Of a stretch of 64,000 nucleotides of DNA, positions 4,880-51,347 are shown one piece after another. The stretch comes from Kondoa malvinella (Eukaryota; Basidiomycota; Agaricostilbomycetes; Agaricostilbales; Kondoaceae), in contig BCIM01000012.1 in the NCBI GenBank assembly GCA_039545315.1, forward strand, positions 535,390 to 599,389. The letters run 5' to 3'. Position numbers and translations under genes: made by a program. How positions within the stretch are numbered: position 1 is the first letter of the stretch; each line of letters begins with the position of its first letter. The notes below the pieces were generated by a model. The model ran no database searches and was not told the origin of the DNA. It saw nothing but the letters and a program-made list of their open reading frames with translations.

Positions 4880-5091
4880 TGCCCGGAAAATGTAGAGCAG
4901 GACAATGTAAACCCGGAATCAAGGGAGAAAAGAGGGGGTATCACAGGGTATCAGAGCAGCGAATTACACAACTGCTACTGGTCAGGGAATCACTGCTTGC
5001 CTCTAGCTTGGCCGTCGTGCTCCAACATATTTCACCTCGTTTGACTTCGACTTCGAACAGCCGCTGCTCCAACAAATCGGTTCGGTCAAGG

Positions 5092-39479: not shown

Positions 39480-41537
39480 TCATTGCGCTTCGCTGATATC
39501 ACTAGCTACACTACCCGCTCTCTTGCTCCTCCCACCGGCCTTTTTGGCTCTACCAGGCTTCTTCACAGGTGGCGGAGGACTGATAGGCTCGCGCGACTGT
39601 TCTCTGCTCGCTGCTGATATGCGCTTTGATCTTCGAATAGGTTGTGCAGGAGTAGGTGGTTCAGGAGCAGTACCTCGAACATGTCTTGGTTTCCTGCTGC
39701 TAGTTGATGCCTTTGATACCGGACTGGAGTTCTTGACTTGTCGCATTTCTGGGACTTCATCTTCTTCCTCTTCCATCTCAGCTTCTGGTTCCGGTGCAGG
39801 AGCAGATGTTTCTTCTTCGTTATCTGATGTAGAGCCAAATGCACCGGGTAGAACTTTACGCGAGGGTGTAGCGGGTTTCTCTTTCGGCTCTTCCTCCTGT
39901 TGATCTTGCTGCTCCTTTCCAGCATCAGCCTCTTCATCTACCTCCATTTCGACCGCTCTCATCTTCTGTCTGTTTGCTCTACTGCGAGGTTCCGGTGCGC
40001 TCCTCTTGCTCGATGCAGGCTGCTGTTGCTGCGGAGGTGCAGGCGAACGATCGCGTGGATAAGGTGACTGCGAGCTCTGTGCAGGTGGAGCAGGTCTTGA
40101 ATGAGGTTGGTACGCAAAGTCGCGCTGCAATCGCATTTGCGCGGGTAGGGATTTCTGCGGTGCAGGACTACCATAAGTCGAGTTGGTCGTCCGATTGACC
40201 GGTTTATCTTGTACTCGGGGAACAAAGGGAGATCCAGCGTAAGGTGAGCCCATGGGTGACGCAGGCCGAGGGGAATGCGGTGTACCGAAAGATGTTTTGC
40301 GCATTGGACTGCCTAGACGTAACGCTTCAACGACGTGCTTGATTGCTCGCGAGTCTCCAGATGCGCGGAAAGCTGGAGAGGCCGAAAGAGGAATGTTGCG
40401 ATTATCGGAAGCTTTCTCTGCTGCAGCGGAAGGAGGTGCCCAAGGTAGTTGCGCGACAGCTGATCCTTCCTCCATTTGGTGATCTACGCCGTTTGTCATT
40501 GGCTCTGGTTCTTGTTGTTCCGTTTCTAGTATGGAAGCATCCAATTCCGACATGATGCTGAAAAGACCTTTCTTGAGCAGCGCGCGTTTTCTGGCAGCTT
40601 GATTATCAGAAGGTTTGAGGGAAGGAGAGTCGACAAGTTTGGAAGCTTCTATGTAACGACCTTGAGCTATGAGACGAGCGAGAATCCATTCGGCTAGCAT
40701 ATCTCGGTTGGCAGCTTTCATGTCTGCTGGTGGTTTCTCTGCATAGGCGAGAACGATGGAGTCTTCGAATTCGTCGAATGGAGCGTTGAGAAGAGCTTGC
40801 ATCGCTGATTTAATGATGACACCCGTCTGATTGGCTGCTAGGAAATCAGCCTTGACTATGCATTGAACTAGGTTGATTACCTCCAAGCGCAGTGGATAAG
40901 ACAACGCGGACCAGTTCTGCATGCATCGTCCCAGTTGTTCTAGCCCATCTCAGTGCTTCCGATGGATCACCGACGCGCACAAAGGCTTCTACGACCGCTT
41001 GAATCGCTGATGTCGAATCCAGCGATACTCTCGCTTGACGAACAAAAGCGACGAGATCCTTTGGCGATACCGAGAGAAGGTGTAGTATAGATGGTAAGAA
41101 CTGTAGACATCCATCGCTATCAGCTCTCAGCGTTGTAAATAGCAAAAGCCTCACGTCTGGAACAACGCCAGGATACGATAGAGCCTTGACACCAGCCTGA
41201 GAACGATCTGAGAATGGGACCAGGACGTCAGGATTGTGCTTACCTCGATCTGAACATGGTCAAGCTGCCAATAGCCCGTTGTTGACTTGACAAAGCTTTT
41301 GGGCAGACAAGACTCTCGTGCGAATTCCAATGCCGCTGCTTTCGATTGATCCAAATACAGATAGAATCTACCGGTACACTTGAGCACCAGTACTTTGCGA
41401 GCAACACAGCTTTCAAGAGCTCACTTGAGGCAATTCCTCTCGAGGGAATGGAAAATGTTGCTCTCTTCCACCATCCGCATCAGTGAAGCTTGCTGCATTT
41501 CTGTTTGCGGTGGATAAAGCCAGCTCTCTGCGATCAT
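39480..41537 (-). CDS. ELYS-like nucleoporin / nuclear pore assembly protein
   Basis: The N-terminal exons read MIAESWLYPPQTEMQQAS, then CTGRFYLYLDQSKAAALEFA, CLPKSFVKSTTGYWQLDH. This LxLD...FA..F.LP..FVKST.GFW.LDH order is the one I know from the ELYS-type nuclear pore assembly domain. Helical repeats follow (FVRQARVSLDSTSAIQAVVE, LRLEVINLVQCIVKADFLA, EWILARLIAQGRYIEASKL). The last 330 residues are disordered, Pro/Ser/Glu-rich, with repeated SP motifs (candidate CDK sites). The end KKPGRAKKAGGRSKRAG resembles an AT-hook. The last exon is a single ORF of 480 codons. Fungal ELYS relatives are usually shorter; the long tail is the odd part. Confidence 0.7.
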
Positions 41538-42216: not shown

Positions 42217-42508
42217 ATGGCACAAGAAAGCGTTCAACAGGTTCTGGACAGAGCAATCAATTCTGAAAATGGTCCGCAGGACTTGTCTTCGCTTCTATTG
42301 ACAAGACGGGCAAAGTATTGGCTTCTGCGGCTTCTGGTGTTAGGTCGGTGGATAAGCCAGATGACAAGGTAAGCGCTTGATCTCTTTGGAATGCGGAGGG
42401 TCGACTGAATGGTTGTAGATGACGCTTGATACTGGTGAGCAATAGCTTATTGGCAAATATCCGAAGCAGACGCATAGTACAGTCTTCCCAATCTGGTCCT
42501 GCACCAAG
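42217..42508 (+). pseudogene. 5' part of a serine beta-lactamase/esterase-family gene, interrupted
   Basis: The ATG at 42217 opens MAQESVQQVLDRAINSENGP. Homology to the intact copy at 55454 then continues one frame over (AGLVFASIDKTGKVLASAAS), which requires a 1-nt deletion near 42272. Two introns sit where those of the intact copy do (about 42369-42418 and 42436-42477). The third exon ends TVFPIWSCTK, containing the catalytic SxxK motif (SCTK, 42497-42508). Coding homology stops exactly there. About 240-300 middle residues are absent, and the last ~38 codons reappear at 53691. The gene is dead on two counts: frameshift and interruption. Confidence 0.88.
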
Positions 42509-42518
42509 GTTGGCTCTT

Positions 42519-45500
42519 CTACCAGTTACTGAAAATCACATACTGACTCATTCTGCCCTTGGGCTGCTTAAGGCATAAAGCCCAGCTGTGAGGAAGGTCC
42601 GTAATCGTTTTCCTCATTCCTGCCCAGACTGGTATCAGTTTGATCGAATGTGGAAGCCACGTTGTCACTCGCGTGTTTGATGATCTCCAAGGATCACGAC
42701 CAAATGCCAGCAAGTGCCATCCCGCGTACACAATGTTCAATGCCGCGGCCTTGTCCCTATTGTAGATCGCCGTGCAAGTGCAGCATTGACTGAGCCTGCC
42801 GTTCTGGTGCTTGCTAATCTGGTGCTTTGGGTAGTATACGCTAATGATGAAGCAGTCAAACCCGGTCGACCAGATCTGGAAACCCAAAGACTCACGTTGA
42901 TCTGATTTGGCAAAAGTCGCCCTTTGATCTATCCATGGTGCACTTCGGCTTTGGGCAAATCTGCGATGTCCAATCTTCGTTCACTAGCCTGAACAAGACG
43001 TTGAGACCCAGATAGGCACATCTCTTCTTGAGTGCCTTGATCAACGACGCCCTTTGATCAAAAGTGTGCGACATCCCTTTGCCCAGCACATCAACACCAG
43101 CACCAATGAGCATGATGAATAATGGCGAATCGGGAGCAGAAGTAACGCCCATCTCTTTGATGATCGCGTCGACCGTCGTGTCCAGCAAAGACCTTTGCCG
43201 CTGCTTGTGCAAGTAAGCCTGCTTTCGCACAGAGTAGGAGGAGCGATGTAGCGTGTCAAAGAAGTCGCTTGCGGTCGCGAGATCTGGATCGTGCGCTCCG
43301 ATGGCCTTGAGTTGCTGCAGGTCGACCATGAAAGGCTGCTTCGCCATTTTCCGCTGATGCTGACGCAACAGATCTTGAGCTCGGTTTGCAGTGTACATTG
43401 CGAAGCCTTGAATCCGATCTTGTTCCTCATCGGTCTTGATGATGGCTGTTGCAATCTTGAACTTGCCGCCCATGTCAATCCCTCCCCAGCTCACATCTTT
43501 GGACTTGAAAGTTGCACAGTCGAACGATTCATCCTTCGCTATGCCGCACTTCTCCTTGATCAGGGACTGCAGTTCTTCGATGCTTCCATTGCCTTCGCGC
43601 AAAGTCTTCATCAAAGGCAGACCGTTGACAGTCTTGCTGGGCTTTAAAGACTTGACTTCAGCAAAGGTGCGTGCTTTGATCGCCTTGTTCTTGCGATGCG
43701 TTGCATGCCAAGGCAAGACGATTGAGCGATTCAGACAGCCTTGTAGATTGCCTTGCCGATCGATCTTGGCCTTTTGTCCAACACCGTTGACCTTGAGCTT
43801 CTGCCAGTAGGTGCCAAGGTCGTGATCCCACGACGACTTCCTCTCATCCCAAAGAGGTTCAGACTTGTTCTCCCTGTTGAAATGAAGCAGCACATCCCGG
43901 AAAACGTCCCAGACTGGGCGGATCACTCCATCCACGGTTCCAGACACTTCCTTGGGCAATCGACCTCGGCCAACATCCAGGCAAGTGAACTTGATTTCAA
44001 AGGTGACATCGCATGTGATTTCGATCGGAACATGGTTGAGGGGTAAGGACGAGGTGTCGTAGATGGTCTGGAGAGCAAGAAGGTGAAGACCGCGAAATTG
44101 TCCTTCCGAGAAAGAGGTGATTCCTAGTCGTTCCGATACTGAGCCGAGACATTTGGATAGTGACTCTCTCCAACGAGCACTTGCTTTGACCTTTGGCATT
44201 CTCACGGTATGAGGTAGTGACAGTCCAATTTGTCCGCGAAGACTCTTCTCAGGCTGATCGGTGTGCTCAAAGATGGCGAGCGAGTCGATGAAGCCTAGAG
44301 CGAATGTCGTACTGTCTTCTGCCGAGCCGGTAGGCACCACATCGATCTTGCCTGAAGCAGTATTTGTTTGCACAACCCCAAAGGCATTTTGCATCACTCT
44401 GTTGATATGGCGGATGGAGTTGTCGATAAAGTTGTCGACATCGGCGAAAAGAGCTCGATGCCTATCACCTCCGAAAGCGATGCGACCACCTTGCAAACTC
44501 TTGAACACGCTATCAGAGTGATAAACCTCGATCGACACATGTCACTCACCACAGCGATGCCTTCTTCTATTCCAGCAATCTTCTTGATGTGATGTAGCCA
44601 AGGCAGCAGCGCAAAGTATGTACACTTTGCGATGTTCGGCCGCTCAAGAATCAGCCGAGGATATGCATTCTTGGGCATGCAATCGATCGCTGACAATTCA
44701 TGGCGATTGAGCATCATATCTCGAAGCTTGCAAATCACAGCGTCTCGTAGACCTGACTCCAGCCTCCGAGGAGCGAATCGCTTGATTGAATCTGACATCT
44801 TCTTGACGACTGTTTCGCTGAGTTGATTGACTCCGATGCTGGAGGAAGGGGTCAGGTAGACGCTGTCGAGCAAATAGTCGGCGAAGATGTTGGAAATGGC
44901 GGAAATCAATTGCTTGGACTTGTTCTCAGCTTCGATTTCAGATGTTGTATCCCAAGATTGTGCTGCCACAATATCTTGCAAGACGGCAACACAGGCCGCT
45001 CGAACACTGATTTGGAAAGCTTCTTTTGCCGAGGTGAACAAGTTGGAAGAATATTGCCGACAGATGCCATTCCAATGCGTCTTGAACGCATAGTGATCAA
45101 TCAAAGGAGGTTTCTTCGCTTTGAACAGTGTCATTTTCGCGGCTTCAATCATGAGAGGATCCAGAGTCTCCGAGCTTGCGTTTTGGAGGATCTGAACTGG
45201 TATGCGAGCAACGTAATCGGCCAAGCTGTCCGGTTGGGAGCGGAAAGGGAAAGTCCCACTCTGGTGTTGTTCCAGTAATCTTGACACACGGACACGATGT
45301 TGAGTCAATTCTGATGGCGAGAGTTCCTTTTGAAATGTGCTTTCTTTCAAGAGCGGTAGCAACCCGTTGACCATGCCACTGGTGAACTCGCTGGATGATG
45401 CAAAGCGTGATAAAGCAGAACCAGCCTCGAGCAAATTGCAGAGGCGGTCGACATAGTTGCTCACGGCACAGTGAACAGTTGGAATTTCGAGAGACTGCGA

Positions 45501-47766
45501 CCCTGCAGCCAGGCAGATGAGGCCGAGAATAGGGTTGTGTCGAGAATTTGCAGCATCGGCAGTGAGTGCTCGGAAGCTCGCTGAGTTGGTTCTGCCGTCG
45601 GTGCTGATGGCGTACGTCCTGCGCAGACTAGTCGCTCCCCCTTGTGCTTGATCATCTTCTTGAGCGTCTGGGTCGGGATTTTCTGCCAAGTCATCTTGAT
45701 CTGCCACTTCAGCAGCTCGCTCCTTCCGAGCTCTCTTTTGTTCTTCGCGGACCGCGTTGACGGGAGCAACCTTTGTAGGGACAAACTTGCTCTGAGGTGG
45801 TTTCGAATTTGCTGCATTCCCTTTTTTTGTTGGAGCAGAGGATCTTGCTAGCTTGTTTGAGTCGGACGCAGATCTGGGGACCTCTGGTACGTTGCTGAAT
45901 TCCATTGCTGCCATTTTAAATCCGTCCTTCGTCTTCCAAGCAACTCGAATCGGCCGTTGGGATGTTTTCTTCTTTTCCTTTGCTTTCCGCTGTTTAGCCT
46001 CTTCTCGCTCGCGCATTCTTTCTGCTTGAAGATGAGCATTAGTGTAGCCGAATGACCCTTGAATGTCTTGCAAAGAGTCAGCTGGCAGAGGTCTTGCGCT
46101 TTTCTTAGGCTGCACCGACTGCCATGCGTCTGCGGCTTCACGTCGTTGGACCTTGACGGCTTGCTGCTTGGCTTTGACTCGGTCACGCTCTTGGGAAGTA
46201 GCAAAGCTGCTAGCGTCTAGAGGCATTCGGAGAAAAGGAAAGATGTTGGAAGGAAGGCGAGCATCACCCTTTGATTTCTTGACCAAATCGGAAGGTTTTG
46301 CACGCCATTGGCGGAAAGGGATGCAAGAAGCTGACGAGCGTCGATGCTGACCGAACGCGGCTACCAGATATGCTGAATGGAAGACTTCTTTGTTTTCCTT
46401 GAAGTGCTCAGCAATCGCCTGAGCTTTCTTGCCAGCCAGCAGCTTGATTGCAGGATAGAGCCCGTCGTATCCTCCCTGCTTAGCAAAGTTAGCTTGAGCT
46501 TTACCCCAGTAAAAGAGCAATTGACCTTGCAAATCCTTCGAATGTATTTCCGCACCCATCCGAGACCAACACCAGGCGACCCCTTTCCCGTCTCATCAGA
46601 TCCTGCCATCATCCGAGCGACAATCCTCTCAAAACCAGTCTGCATACCCCAGCGCTCATCGTTCTGCAATCCAACGTTATCCACCACAACCCATTTCTTC
46701 ACCTGACCCCTGCGACGACTCTTGTCCTTGAACAGAACTTGCTGAATCGTTCTTCCATCAGCGACGAACAACAGATCGCAGTCGCCGCTGTAGGTGGTGT
46801 TCTTGTTGCTGGCGTCAGCCCGCTGGAGTATTTCGCAACCATTCTTTATGCACAAGTCGGATTCGCTGGCCGAGAGGATGTAGGTGATGCTGCTTTTGCT
46901 CTCAACAATCGATCGGTTCAGCTGATGGTATCGCTTCCAATACTCGTCGGCGTCCGCCGCATCCTCTGACTCTGGATAGGCTGGGACGCTGTTGCCTAAA
47001 TCGTCTTGCGTCAACACTGGAGCTTCTCGGATGAAAGCAGGCAGGTAATCGCGTTGTAAAGGCACTGATTCGAAAGGATGGAACGTTGCGGAGCGCAAAT
47101 GTGATAGGTCGGGAGTGTTCAGAAGAGGTTCAAACGGATGTCGAGCGAGGATGCTGCTACCGAGTGCGTAGGCTGGATTGTAGAAGATGGATGTAGCATT
47201 CTTCCTGACGGCATAGAAGAGGTTGCGTAGTCGTCGACCTTGTGGATTGGACGGTCGACCGCTGATTCCCCTGTCCAATTGACGGGCTACTCTCAGTGAG
47301 GAGATTGTTGAGCTGTATTTCATCCTGATCTTTTCCTGTCGCCCCATTTGCTCGACCAATTTGCCTTGACTTTGAAAGTCCGGATTGTCGCAAACACCAA
47401 AGACACGAGTAAACTCTTGAGACAGCTTGAGCATCAGCTTCGCGACTTCTTCCCAAAACGCCTGATTCAGAGCTTCTTGCGCCAAATGCAAGGTCAAGTA
47501 CGCTGTCAGCTGAGGACGGATCTTGGTGAAGCAGCCTTCGAGGTTGACAAAGTCGACAGCAAGAAGCTGGAACATATCGTGGCATACGTTGTGCAGGTCA
47601 ACCCAGAGGTTGGCTAAGACCAGGTCTCAGCTCAAAATTCTTGAATGCTTGATGTGAACTCACAAGAAGCACCGTGCCCTGCAGCTGCCAAAGCTGCCTG
47701 CAGCGATGGAAATCTCTTGATACATTCCGATGCTAGAACATGTGCTGTGCCTCCATGCGCACCCAT
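42519..47766 (-). CDS. Very large Fanzor-like (TnpB/OrfB superfamily) RuvC nuclease
   Basis: Five exons (47766-47664, 47613-46648, 46582-44550, 44499-42896, 42840-42519) join in exact phase to 5028 nt, about 1675 residues. Introns are 50, 65, 50 and 55 nt with branch sites. Residues ~1035-1675 carry the TnpB/Fanzor core. RuvC-I is WGGIDMGGKFKIATAII (Asp ~1376). The RuvC-II strand FIMLIGAGVDV has Gly where Glu is expected (~1500), and a Glu sits ~40 residues later in VNEDWTS (~1542). A zinc finger has Cys pairs CPKPKC and CCTC, and RuvC-III is YNRDKAAALNI (Asp ~1598). Fanzors are eukaryotic RNA-guided DNA nucleases; a moved Glu is, as I recall, a Fanzor trait. Residues 1-1034 are unlike anything I know: helical N-terminus, basic Lys/Arg/Glu coil (REREEAKQRKAKEKKK) and a helical region that may be recognition lobe. 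The stop lies 10 nt from the broken beta-lactamase exon. Confidence 0.78.
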
Positions 47767-48173: not shown

Positions 48174-49902
48174 TCACTCAAAATCACACTCCGAGCCCGA
48201 ATCTTCTGTTGCATCTGGTACTTGAATATCTGAATCTTGTCCCTCTGCGTAAGACGTGCGGCCGACCCTGCTTCGACTTGGTCTTTGCACCGAGGTAGGT
48301 GTTGGTGGAAGCGCGCTGGTACCTGCAATAGGTGTGCTTTGACGGGCAGCGAATGATTTGCCTGTAGCGATTGCAGCAAAGTAGTTTTCTAGTGAGTCGG
48401 GTAAGTCATCCTTGTTGTTGGCCAAGTCTTTGCGTGCTATTGATGCGATCAGCGCCGAGCAGCATCTGCCTGGTCATTGCCTACCTTTATCGACCTCTTT
48501 CTTTCTTCTGATACTCGTTTTGCAATTAGTGTACTTCTTGAAGTGACCGCTCTCTTCCCATATTTGCCGATATACCAACAGAAGTGCTCTTGCATCCTCA
48601 TCTTTGAGCTCTTCCTATTTGCAAAACAGTTTTTTGGCAATTGCCCAACTTTGCAAGCAACGATCGCTCACCTCAGGTTTCAGCTCTATTGCTGATCTTT
48701 CACCTGTTCCACCCATCAGTCTTCGTATCTCGACGTGGAGGTATACCGACCCACGAGTCAGAATCTCGCTTATCTGGCTTTCGCTCAAATCTTTCAGAGG
48801 CGAGACACTCCTGCCCTTGCTTGGATTGGCCTTTCTACTCTTCTTTGTCTTTGCTTCTTTCGCTGGCGCGTCAGTGCTTTCTCGCTTCCTCTTTTTCGCC
48901 TTCCTTTCCTCTTCAGCATTAAAGTCTTTGATCGCCTGCGCTTCCTCTCTCATTTTCCTGGCCGAGAAGCTTGCTTGTAGCGCCTCTTGATGTCGATAGC
49001 CCAACAATGCATTTATTTGTGAGCTTTTGATCATGCGCTCCATTTCAGATGCAGCGACATCATTGCAGGATGCAGCGAGACCTTGCTCAACTTCTTTCTG
49101 CGATTGTTGCAAATTCGCCAGGAGTTGGCGTGAGTGACCTTCTGGATCACAGACAAGATGCTGTCGAGTCTTGTCGGTAATGCTGGGAAATGGCCACGGC
49201 TGAGAGGTGATACGAGCCAGGTGTCTTTGTGCCTCTTTTATAGCTAGGATGAGGTGACCCTCGTCCCAGACTACGCCTTCTGGTGCCCTCTCGACATGAG
49301 CAAACACTGAATTTTCGAGGTAAGCCATTTCATCAGGATTCTTGCCAAAGGTCGGATCGCAGACGAGGGAAGCCATGAAGCTTGCAGTGAGGGCGTCTTC
49401 TACAGCGTGCGCAAGCTCGCTTTGCAGTTCCAAGACCTTGGGCGATTCGGTATGGCTCTTGCAGAGTAGACTTCCCACGAGTTCTTGGTGCTTGCTCAGG
49501 AGCTGTCTAAGCAGAACTGAGAACGGTACGTCTTTGGACGGGTGAAAAGAGACATCTTGCACCACAACAGGAGGACTACGGGCCGAGTCTTGCTGTGCCG
49601 CCTGTTTCAGCTGGTTCATGGTATCTTTGACTGCCTGTTGGCCTGCGTCGTGCTCGGCCTTCGATAAGAGGACGCTGTCATGCCGCCCGTTTAAGAATCT
49701 GTTCAGGCTGTAGTTTATGAGGACCTTACCTTCGACCGTAGCTCATGGCTAATTTGGAAGCGTCTGCCAATACATGACACTGCACTATGAGATTGATCAG
49801 TCTGTTGAAGTTAGCGGTGTAGTCCAAGAGCTCACCATGTCCGTAATCTTGTTTGCCTTTCGAGCATACAATGTAGCTGGACACGCTGGCGATCGGCTGC
49901 AT
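48174..49902 (-). CDS. Unrecognised lysine-rich, probably nuclear protein in the block
   Basis: Five exons join in frame from the ATG at 49902: MQPIASVSSYIVCSKGKQDY, HVQCHVLADASKLAMSYGRS, then the main exon VLLSKAEHDAGQQAVKDTMN onward, EELKDEDARALLLVYRQIWE, and KDLANNKDDLPDSLENYFAA to SGSECDFE. About 500 residues, helical in the first half. A strongly basic segment KKRKRESTDAPAKEAKTKKS (bipartite NLS-like) is followed by ISEILTRGSVYLHVEIRRLM, and an acidic end. No known domain is recognised. Frame conservation over four introns indicates a functional gene. Its stop is 407 nt upstream of the Fanzor start on the same strand. Confidence 0.65.
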
Positions 49903-50109
49903 TGATCTGCCACATACTGTCCTTCTGCGTCAGCTGGGCGCTGATGTGCGCATGGAGTACTGACTCGAGCACGACTGGATCTGTTCATCTGTAGTATCCA
50001 TGATCATCAAGTCTTTCTCTCGCTTCCGGTGATCAAGAATTGGCGATGCTAGTTTTGCACGCGGTCTGCGCAACCATCAGTCTAAACGATATCTTCAGCC
50101 AGTCTTTCC

Positions 50110-51347
50110 TCACTCGTATTGACGGATCGAGAGAGTGTTGTCCGCGGTAATGTTCTCCAGACATTCCCGAATCTTGCCAACAGCCTCCAGCAAACCCTGC
50201 ATCTTGCCTTCCTTGTTATTCATCTCTGCATAATTGTCAAGGCCGTTCAATTGGAAACAAGGTGTCTTACTCACCTGTTTTCCACTCGCCGGTTCCTATA
50301 TCAAGCCAGCTGAGAGCGGTTTGTCCTTGACCGCTGATCGGTGCTTTATCTTTGGCGATCGACACGTAAACGATTCTGTCTTCGGTTATTGCAGTGGCCA
50401 AGAGTTGATCCAACCATAAGAAGAATTGGTATACCAGTTGCGCGACAGAGATGGTTGGAGGTAAGCAGAATCCAGCCAAAGCCGCTCGAATTGAACTGCA
50501 GCGTGCTTGCCGTGACTCTTCGGCGTCTTTGACATTGGCAAAAGCATGTTGCGCAGGATGTCTTGACCGTATGTTAGATCAGGAAGCTAAACGAGCAGCG
50601 GACTCACGTCATCGTGGGCATATCGTAAACGTCCACTACGAATGCGATAAAACAGTATGTCAGGCAAGCCGATCTGAAGGTAGTTTGCTCCCTATTCGTT
50701 TTGCCTTGAACGGTTGGCAGCACCATCTTGTTGAGTTGCTTGATGATGATAAGGGAAATGCGGAGTCGCTCGTCCTCCGATAGGTATGCTGCCATTGTAT
50801 CGGCCAATGCAATCCCGACACTGTTTTCGCCGGTCAAATCGACCTTGACTTGCACGCCATCGACGTTGACCTCTCCCTGCAGGCCCCTATGTTCTGCAGA
50901 GCCCACGCCGCGAACATTTTGCAACACATTATCGACTTTTGCGTTCATGATCAGACGAAGCAAGTGTTGCATAAGGGTTTTGCGAGAAAGGTCCAGAGGC
51001 ATGTTATCGAGCAGAACCATAAAGTCGACATCGTACTCTGTTCCTGGCAGAGAACTAGTCGTACATCCTCCTGCAGTCAATCGACCATTTGCTGATCCAA
51101 AGCGTATGAGGTGGACTTTAGTCGAATCGTCGAACAAATCTTGAAGAGTTCTCTGGACTTTCTTTTCGACCAGGTCTGTGAGCCGGTCTCGCCTCGAGTC
51201 GTCGAAGCCACGGGAGAGCCCTGTCTCGCTATGAGCACGGATTTGGATCTCTTTGCTTGGGTGGTGTACATAGCTTGGCGTACTCGACTGGCGACGAGAT
51301 CCGTCAGATGCGATAATATCGTATGACTGTGCAGTACTGACGATCAT
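50110..51347 (-). CDS. Pol-beta-superfamily nucleotidyltransferase (poly(A)/poly(U) polymerase-like)
   Basis: Start MIVSTAQSYDII, chosen as the first ATG of the open frame; an upstream exon is possible. The catalytic pattern is RFGSANGRLTAGG (GS motif), then DVDFMVLL (first two acids), and VDGVQVKVDLTGENSVGI (third Asp). Then ADTMAAYLSEDERLRISLII and QTTFRSACLTYCFIAFVVDV fit the helical central domain of non-canonical poly(A) or terminal uridylyl transferases. After two introns the end is SVAQLVYQFFLWLDQLLATA ... NNKEGKMQGLLEAVGKIREC ... SIRQYE. About 380 residues with no RNA-binding domain. CCA-adding and OAS-type enzymes are alternatives. It shares strand and spacing with the Fanzor-like and lysine-rich genes. 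Confidence 0.6.

What the first reader, a model, noticed from the sequence alone, without database searches (positions are those of the whole stretch)
42519..47766. A ~1675-residue Fanzor-like RNA-guided-nuclease candidate in an intact five-exon gene
Four introns with correct splice and branch signals join three different reading frames into one open frame ending in RuvC-I (GIDMGG), a Cys4 zinc finger and RuvC-III (NRDKAAALNI), the TnpB/Fanzor arrangement. From memory, described Fanzors are mostly well under 1000 residues; here over 1000 residues precede the catalytic core and resemble nothing I recognise. An intact frame of 5 kb argues for recent activity or selected function.
Basis: partly seen in the sequence, partly recalled or inferred. 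Interest (0 to 1): 0.93.

Follow-up and report, generated by a model that had tools for sequence, protein, structure and literature searches.

The report
Fanzor-like protein with flap-nuclease-like front
A fungal gene encodes a very long protein whose tail looks like a Fanzor-type DNA cutter and whose front looks like a second, DNA-repair-type nuclease, and the same genome keeps three more intact, anciently diverged copies of this combination.

Summary
On the minus strand, 47766-42519, five exons join into one intact 1680-residue frame. The tail carries a RuvC D/E/D triad and a split Cys4 finger with Fanzor-like spacing; Pfam's TNB model matches 5 of 5 C-terminal sequences at E <= 1, FZ1 above its cut-off.

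New here: the genome holds three more full-length intact genes (FZ2-FZ4) and two partial relics; all four genes share four intron positions and phases. The "unrecognised" front is most likely an XPG/FEN1-type nuclease domain, with its motif residues in 4 of 4 genes. Profile-profile score is 33.9 against 12.9 +/- 2.4 for 300 shuffles, maximum 23.2. Pfam and PDB sequence searches do not see it, and FEN1 rows alone do not match.

Four-fold sites are saturated while second positions are conserved: old genes under purifying selection, not recent insertions. RNA guidance and both activities are untested. I found no such fusion in the searches made. Verdict: new variant of a known kind.

The parts
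47664..47766 (-). Exon 1, residues 1-34, begins MGAHG (MG..G as in FEN1/XPG)
47614..47663 (-). Intron 1, 50 nt, phase 1, shared by FZ1-FZ4
46526..47613 (-). Exon 2, residues 35-397: XPG/FEN1-like nuclease domain; D40 47599-47597, D110 47389-47387, K119 47362-47360, R126 47341-47339, E285 46864-46862, D287 46858-46856, D312 46783-46781, D314 46777-46775, D374 46597-46595
46526..46603 (-). GSD...G...G stretch (residues 372-397), matching the H3TH region of the XPG/FEN1 profile
46476..46525 (-). Intron 2, 50 nt, phase 0, weak donor GTCAAT, shared by FZ1-FZ4
44550..46475 (-). Exon 3, residues 398-1039: charged linker and a conserved stretch with no family assigned
44500..44549 (-). Intron 3, 50 nt, phase 0, AAG acceptor, shared by FZ1-FZ4
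42896..44499 (-). Exon 4, Fanzor/TnpB-like part from residue 1040: RuvC-I D1381 43476-43474, E1547 42978-42976, first Cys pair C1554/C1559
42841..42895 (-). Intron 4, 55 nt, phase 2, inside the zinc finger, shared by FZ1-FZ4
42519..42840 (-). Exon 5: second Cys pair C1593/C1596, RuvC-III NRD1603KAA (42755-42753), C-terminus and stop

Best explanation
The gene encodes a fused two-nuclease protein: an XPG/FEN1-type 5'-nuclease domain (residues 1-397), a charged linker with an unassigned conserved stretch, and a Fanzor/TnpB-like RuvC nuclease (from about residue 1040-1105 to 1640). Shown: one open frame after splicing with the architecture conserved in four paralogues; a TnpB-type TNB/zinc finger and a Fanzor-spaced catalytic triad; purifying selection along all three segments. 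Strongly suggested: the XPG/FEN1 nature of the front, with its acidic residues intact. Inferred: the RuvC part cuts a chosen DNA site, perhaps RNA-guided, and the front trims or cleaves the resulting 5' ends or flaps, so that one protein makes and processes the break. After an old capture from a mobile element it is now a resident gene of the fungus, for example in genome defence or recombination.
For: Shared introns and full-length conservation of FZ1-FZ4. TNB matches and triad spacing. Front: motif residues in 4 of 4; profile-profile 33.9, 0 of 300 shuffles as high; 38.6 against the fungus's own RAD2/EXO1/YEN1/FEN-like rows plus one FEN1, while the middle and Fanzor segments give 14.0 and 18.5 against the larger profile. 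Saturated four-fold sites with conserved second positions in every segment.
Against: The front is missed by Pfam and by PDB sequence search, by FEN1 rows alone (17.8) and by FZ1, FZ2 and FZ3 singly; its first 150 residues align only at 1-11. Single-sequence AlphaFold of exon 2 failed (pLDDT 40.5). No guide RNA was found. NCBIfam TnpB stays far below its cut-off and no Fanzor was found among PDB sequences.
Confidence: 0.55

Rival explanations
1. Only the back is a nuclease. The front is an unrelated or dead domain that binds DNA or protein, and its XPG-like motifs are chance or a decayed remnant.
For: Pfam, PDB sequences and FEN1 rows alone give no match; in the plain HMMER ranking reversed decoys follow closely behind RAD2.
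Against: Motif residues kept in 4 of 4 genes across about 21% identity; 0 of 300 shuffles as high.
Confidence: 0.17
2. A resident, domesticated protein that has lost RNA guidance and acts as an ordinary DNA-repair or regulatory nuclease.
For: Single-copy flank, old conserved paralogues, no structured RNA found downstream.
Against: RuvC triad and zinc finger are intact in 4 of 4; the RNA searches were weak and could miss a guide.
Confidence: 0.18
3. A mobile Fanzor element that happens to carry a captured host nuclease, with no host role.
For: Two partial relics 94% identical over 1.5 kb sit at different places and share an end with a third site.
Against: The four intact genes are old and diverged; no terminal repeats or flanking copies at FZ1.
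Confidence: 0.07
4. Two or more separate genes wrongly joined.
For: No RNA-seq; introns 2 and 3 have imperfect signals.
Against: Four loci keep the same exon order and intron phases.
Confidence: 0.03

Closest known systems
Fanzor1 (for example Spizellomyces punctatus SpuFz1)
   Same: RuvC D/E/D triad with similar spacing (166/56, 169/55, 187/65 and 193/65 here; 158/65 in SpuFz1 as printed in PMC11423790), split Cys4 finger, TNB domain.
   Different: 1664-1757 aa against mostly 600-700; a nuclease-like front; introns; no terminal repeats or guide RNA found.
TnpB / Cas12f
   Same: TNB domain above cut-off for FZ1; weak guided_TnpB match in 4 of 4.
   Different: Eukaryotic multi-exon gene, far longer, NCBIfam score far below its cut-off.
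XPG/FEN1 family 5'-nucleases (RAD2/XPG, EXO1, YEN1/GEN1, FEN1)
   Same: Order of motifs MG..G, D, D...K-x6-R, E-x-E/D, DxD, GxD...G; this genome's RAD2 fragment ranks first of 706 sequences with the FZ profile.
   Different: Below Pfam detection; joined to a RuvC nuclease; the stretch between the N and I motifs is longer than in FEN1.

Membership tests
Fanzor/TnpB superfamily | Motif D-X(125,275)-[TS][TS]-XX-C4-X(5,50)-RD (Bao and Jurka 2013) | tested here: met
   D-to-TS gaps 168, 171, 189 and 195; C4 and RD present in 4 of 4, read; definition from PMC3627910 passages
Fanzor/TnpB superfamily | TNB/zinc-ribbon domain (PF07282) | tested here: met
   FZ1 above cut-off; 5 of 5 at E <= 1, but FZ2 below cut-off and 4 of 4 unspliced genome hits below cut-off
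Fanzor/TnpB superfamily | Full-length TnpB model (NF040570) | tested here: not met
   4 of 4 matched at E <= 1; the first has 19.4 bits against a cut-off of 100
Fanzor1 clade | Position in a Fanzor tree; RNA bound and guiding cleavage | not tested
   No Fanzor sequences were at hand; HMMER against PDB found none; Rfam and folding gave no guide
XPG/FEN1 family | Catalytic acidic residues and K-x6-R in order | tested here: met
   4 of 4 genes; E-x-E is E-x-D in FZ1, FZ3 and FZ4
XPG/FEN1 family | Profile match to the XPG_I and H3TH regions | tested here: met
   33.9, P 2.6e-4, 0 of 300 shuffles as high; but 17.8 with FEN1 rows only
XPG/FEN1 family | Pfam XPG_N / XPG_I above cut-off | tested here: not met
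   No match in any of 4 members; the genome search with PF00867 found 5 other places and none of FZ1-FZ4
XPG/FEN1 family | FEN/PIN fold | tested here: inconclusive
XPG/FEN1 family | 5'-flap or exonuclease activity | not testable with these tools
   Needs protein

The most novel reading that the evidence does not exclude
A eukaryotic RNA-guided nuclease that carries its own 5'-flap/end-processing nuclease in the same chain, duplicated long ago and kept as resident genes: one protein that chooses, cuts and processes a genomic site.
Probability: 0.3. Interest if true: 0.93.

Novelty: new variant of a known kind. Interest (0 to 1): 0.78.

Why it matters
What Fanzors do for their eukaryotic hosts is, to my knowledge, open. 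A Fanzor-like RuvC joined to a repair-type nuclease and kept intact in four old paralogues makes a host role directly testable, and suggests how a cut could be coupled to end processing within one protein. If both sites are active it would also be a natural template for a two-nuclease genome-editing enzyme.

Tried and rejected
Terminal inverted repeats around the gene (42448-42466 and 48554-48572, 19 nt, 84%, one of 22 pairs listed): genome-wide the left arm has 66 matches with up to 3 mismatches against 29 for the backwards control, the closest others with 2 mismatches, and no such site at FZ2 or FZ4 for the 9-nt core tried; not accepted. Guide RNA by Rfam (0 matches at E <= 0.1) and by folding the 3' flank (z 1.76) or the L012 tail (z 0.66): nothing. 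Viral contigs: 22 and 40 pattern matches, none confirmed. Protein database: none of 7984 scored candidates for whole FZ2 and none of 14 for the FZ3 C-terminus; both depend on shared 5-residue words and similar length. PDB sequences: no FEN with the N-domain profile, no Fanzor with A2 or A3 (A3 gave LaTranC and one TnpB at E 0.88-2, chance hits among them). Single-sequence fold of exon 2 unusable, so no fold search was run. hhalign of the full FZ front against full FEN1 failed (P 0.011 and not colinear; P 0.051, residues 1-11 only). In the profile, 13 of 120 FEN1 rows came out empty for want of a landmark (found), leaving 107 plus four rows of this genome; this weakens no control, since the shuffles used the same profile. 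Mis-joined genes: rejected on shared introns.
Full report
Observation. The window is G000:C12:535390-599389 of a 19.1 Mb, 20-contig genome. The genome's FEN1, stitched by eye as the query, has as best listed hit Atractiella rhizophila (75% over its whole length; a few others reach 76% over about 90%), followed by many basidiomycetes. The source is probably a Pucciniomycotina-like basidiomycete (inference). On the minus strand at 47766-42519, stop-free frames of 421, 732, 549 and 153 aa lie in three reading frames. Removing introns 47663-47614, 46525-46476, 44549-44500 and 42895-42841 gives one frame of 1680 aa. Intron 2 has a weak donor (GTCAAT) and intron 3 an AAG acceptor; with the nearer TAG the frame breaks.

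Comparative support for the gene model. Searching the same genome with the three long frames found a paralogue matching them at 50, 38 and 38% identity; spliced it is FZ2, C2:343790-338602, 1664 aa. FZ3 is C2:512466-506942, 1757 aa, and FZ4 is C3:1110577-1105101, 1743 aa. FZ1-FZ2 are 43.3% identical over aligned columns, FZ3-FZ4 37.2%, and between the pairs 20.5-21.9%. The four share introns of phase 1 (after residue 34-43), 0 (393-408), 0 (1009-1083) and 2 (inside the zinc finger); FZ3 and FZ4 have one more. A search with whole FZ4 gave 20 matches, which fall at six places: the four genes and two relics.

Back half. Pfam Cas12f1-like_TNB matches FZ1 above its cut-off (26.8 against 26.3 bits, E 5.7e-6) and FZ2 below it (22.4). 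On C-terminal pieces 5 of 5 match at E <= 1, best 1.3e-7. In a genome scan with the same model 4 unspliced places, in FZ3, FZ4 and the relics, score below the cut-off. NCBIfam guided_TnpB is matched by 4 of 4 at E <= 1 but far below its cut-off. The triad in FZ1 is D1381, E1547, D1603, spacing 166 and 56; FZ2, FZ3 and FZ4 have 169/55, 187/65 and 193/65 (whose last position is printed one too low, corrected). PMC11423790 gives D383, E541, D606 for SpuFz1 (158/65) and says that most Fz1 proteins have 600-700 residues (passages read). The motif of Bao and Jurka is met in all four (PMC3627910, passages read). PDB sequence searches found no Fanzor, so strict Fanzor1 membership was not tested.

Front half. 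Residues 1-397 start MG..G and carry in order D40, D110, K119-x6-R126, E285-x-D287, D312-x-D314 and GSD374...G; the same kinds of residue stand in 4 of 4 genes. That this is the motif order of XPG/FEN1 nucleases is recalled, and can be read in the FEN1 sequences. Pfam (4 of 4 members) and PDB sequence searches do not see it. Profile-profile comparison does: the unselected front scores 33.9, P 2.6e-4, against an XPG_I plus H3TH profile, with 300 column shuffles at 12.9 +/- 2.4, maximum 23.2, and the reversed alignment at 13.4. The preselected I region scores 36.5, with shuffles at 11.6 +/- 2.4, maximum 23.1 (P 1.5e-5, probability 79.8%). Against this genome's RAD2, EXO1, YEN1 and FEN-like rows plus one FEN1 the front scores 38.6; the middle and Fanzor segments score 14.0 and 18.5 against the larger profile. 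Results against: FEN1 rows alone give 17.8 (P 0.094); FZ1, FZ2 and FZ3 singly give 16.6, 14.8 and 13.7, only FZ4 reaches 26.1 (P 0.0034); the pairs give 18.1 and 26.5. The first 150 residues align only at 1-11 (19.8, 4 of 300 shuffles as good). Full against full FEN1 failed. In a plain HMMER ranking of 706 sequences, half of them reversed decoys, the RAD2 fragment is first (E 0.038 with the whole front, 0.0054 with the I region), YEN1 and EXO1 third and sixth with the I region, but reversed decoys stand third with the front and fourth with the I region. I put the XPG/FEN1 assignment at about 0.8.

Age and selection. Between FZ1 and FZ2, four-fold sites of conserved residues differ at 49 of 63, 85 of 120 and 94 of 125 in the three segments, near full randomisation, while second codon positions differ at 40, 41 and 30%. 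FZ3-FZ4: 39 of 59, 68 of 92, 86 of 120, and 48, 44 and 37%. The copies are old, and all segments, the front included, appear to be under purifying selection. FZ1's 3' flank has no second copy, and the one terminal-repeat candidate was not accepted.

Relics. C2 near 974 kb (L012) and C1 near 1975 kb (L013) hold partial copies closest to FZ3 and FZ4, 94% identical to each other over 1.5 kb; within the 11.4 kb taken at each, tblastn shows no part of the front. L013 has an in-frame stop. About the last 73 bp of their shared 3' end recur at C4:100833-100906, and its terminal 24 bases occur at exactly three places in the genome, with none for the backwards control. Some members of the wider family were therefore copied as DNA or mobile.

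Mechanism. Most likely the RuvC part cuts a chosen site and the XPG/FEN1-like part processes 5' ends or flaps. Guidance by RNA is knowledge of the family, not shown here; Rfam and folding gave nothing.

Known or new. No relative was found in the protein database or viral contigs, within the limits of those searches. Of the open-licence papers held, none has both Fanzor and XPG or Fanzor and PIN domain; Fanzor with FEN1, and TnpB with flap endonuclease and fusion, give one and the same review (listing only); TnpB with XPG gives one Cas12a paper (listing only); XPG with transposon, basidiomycet and fused gives none. Fanzor papers were seen as passages. A large 2023 Fanzor survey in Science Advances is recalled and was not seen. 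Not in print is therefore claimed only for these searches.

Noticed in passing
L012:3262-4760, L013:4056-5550 and G000:C4:100833-100906 (L060): Two partial Fanzor-like relics, 94% identical over 1.5 kb, end in the same short 3' sequence, with a small hairpin (ATGTCC...GGACAT), that also stands alone at a third place without a Fanzor part; it may be an element end or a remnant of a guide-RNA end.
   Followed up: partly
L063:3356-3379 and 4912-4935 (G000:C4): A 24-base exact direct repeat flanks about 1.5 kb whose right edge is that solo element end, a possible long target duplication; the two relics show no such repeat.
   Followed up: partly
L023:390-1779 (G000:C5): A further FEN-like gene (MGVKDLTSL...) of this genome with a long spacer between its N and I regions; not identified further.
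   Followed up: no
window 39480-41259 and 48174-50578, minus strand: Long frames on both sides of the gene; the five tested, and 42257-42535, match no Pfam family at E <= 0.01.
   Followed up: no
G000:C12:599389 (window 64000): The window ends at the end of its contig, with no telomeric repeat in the last 1 kb read by eye.
   Followed up: no
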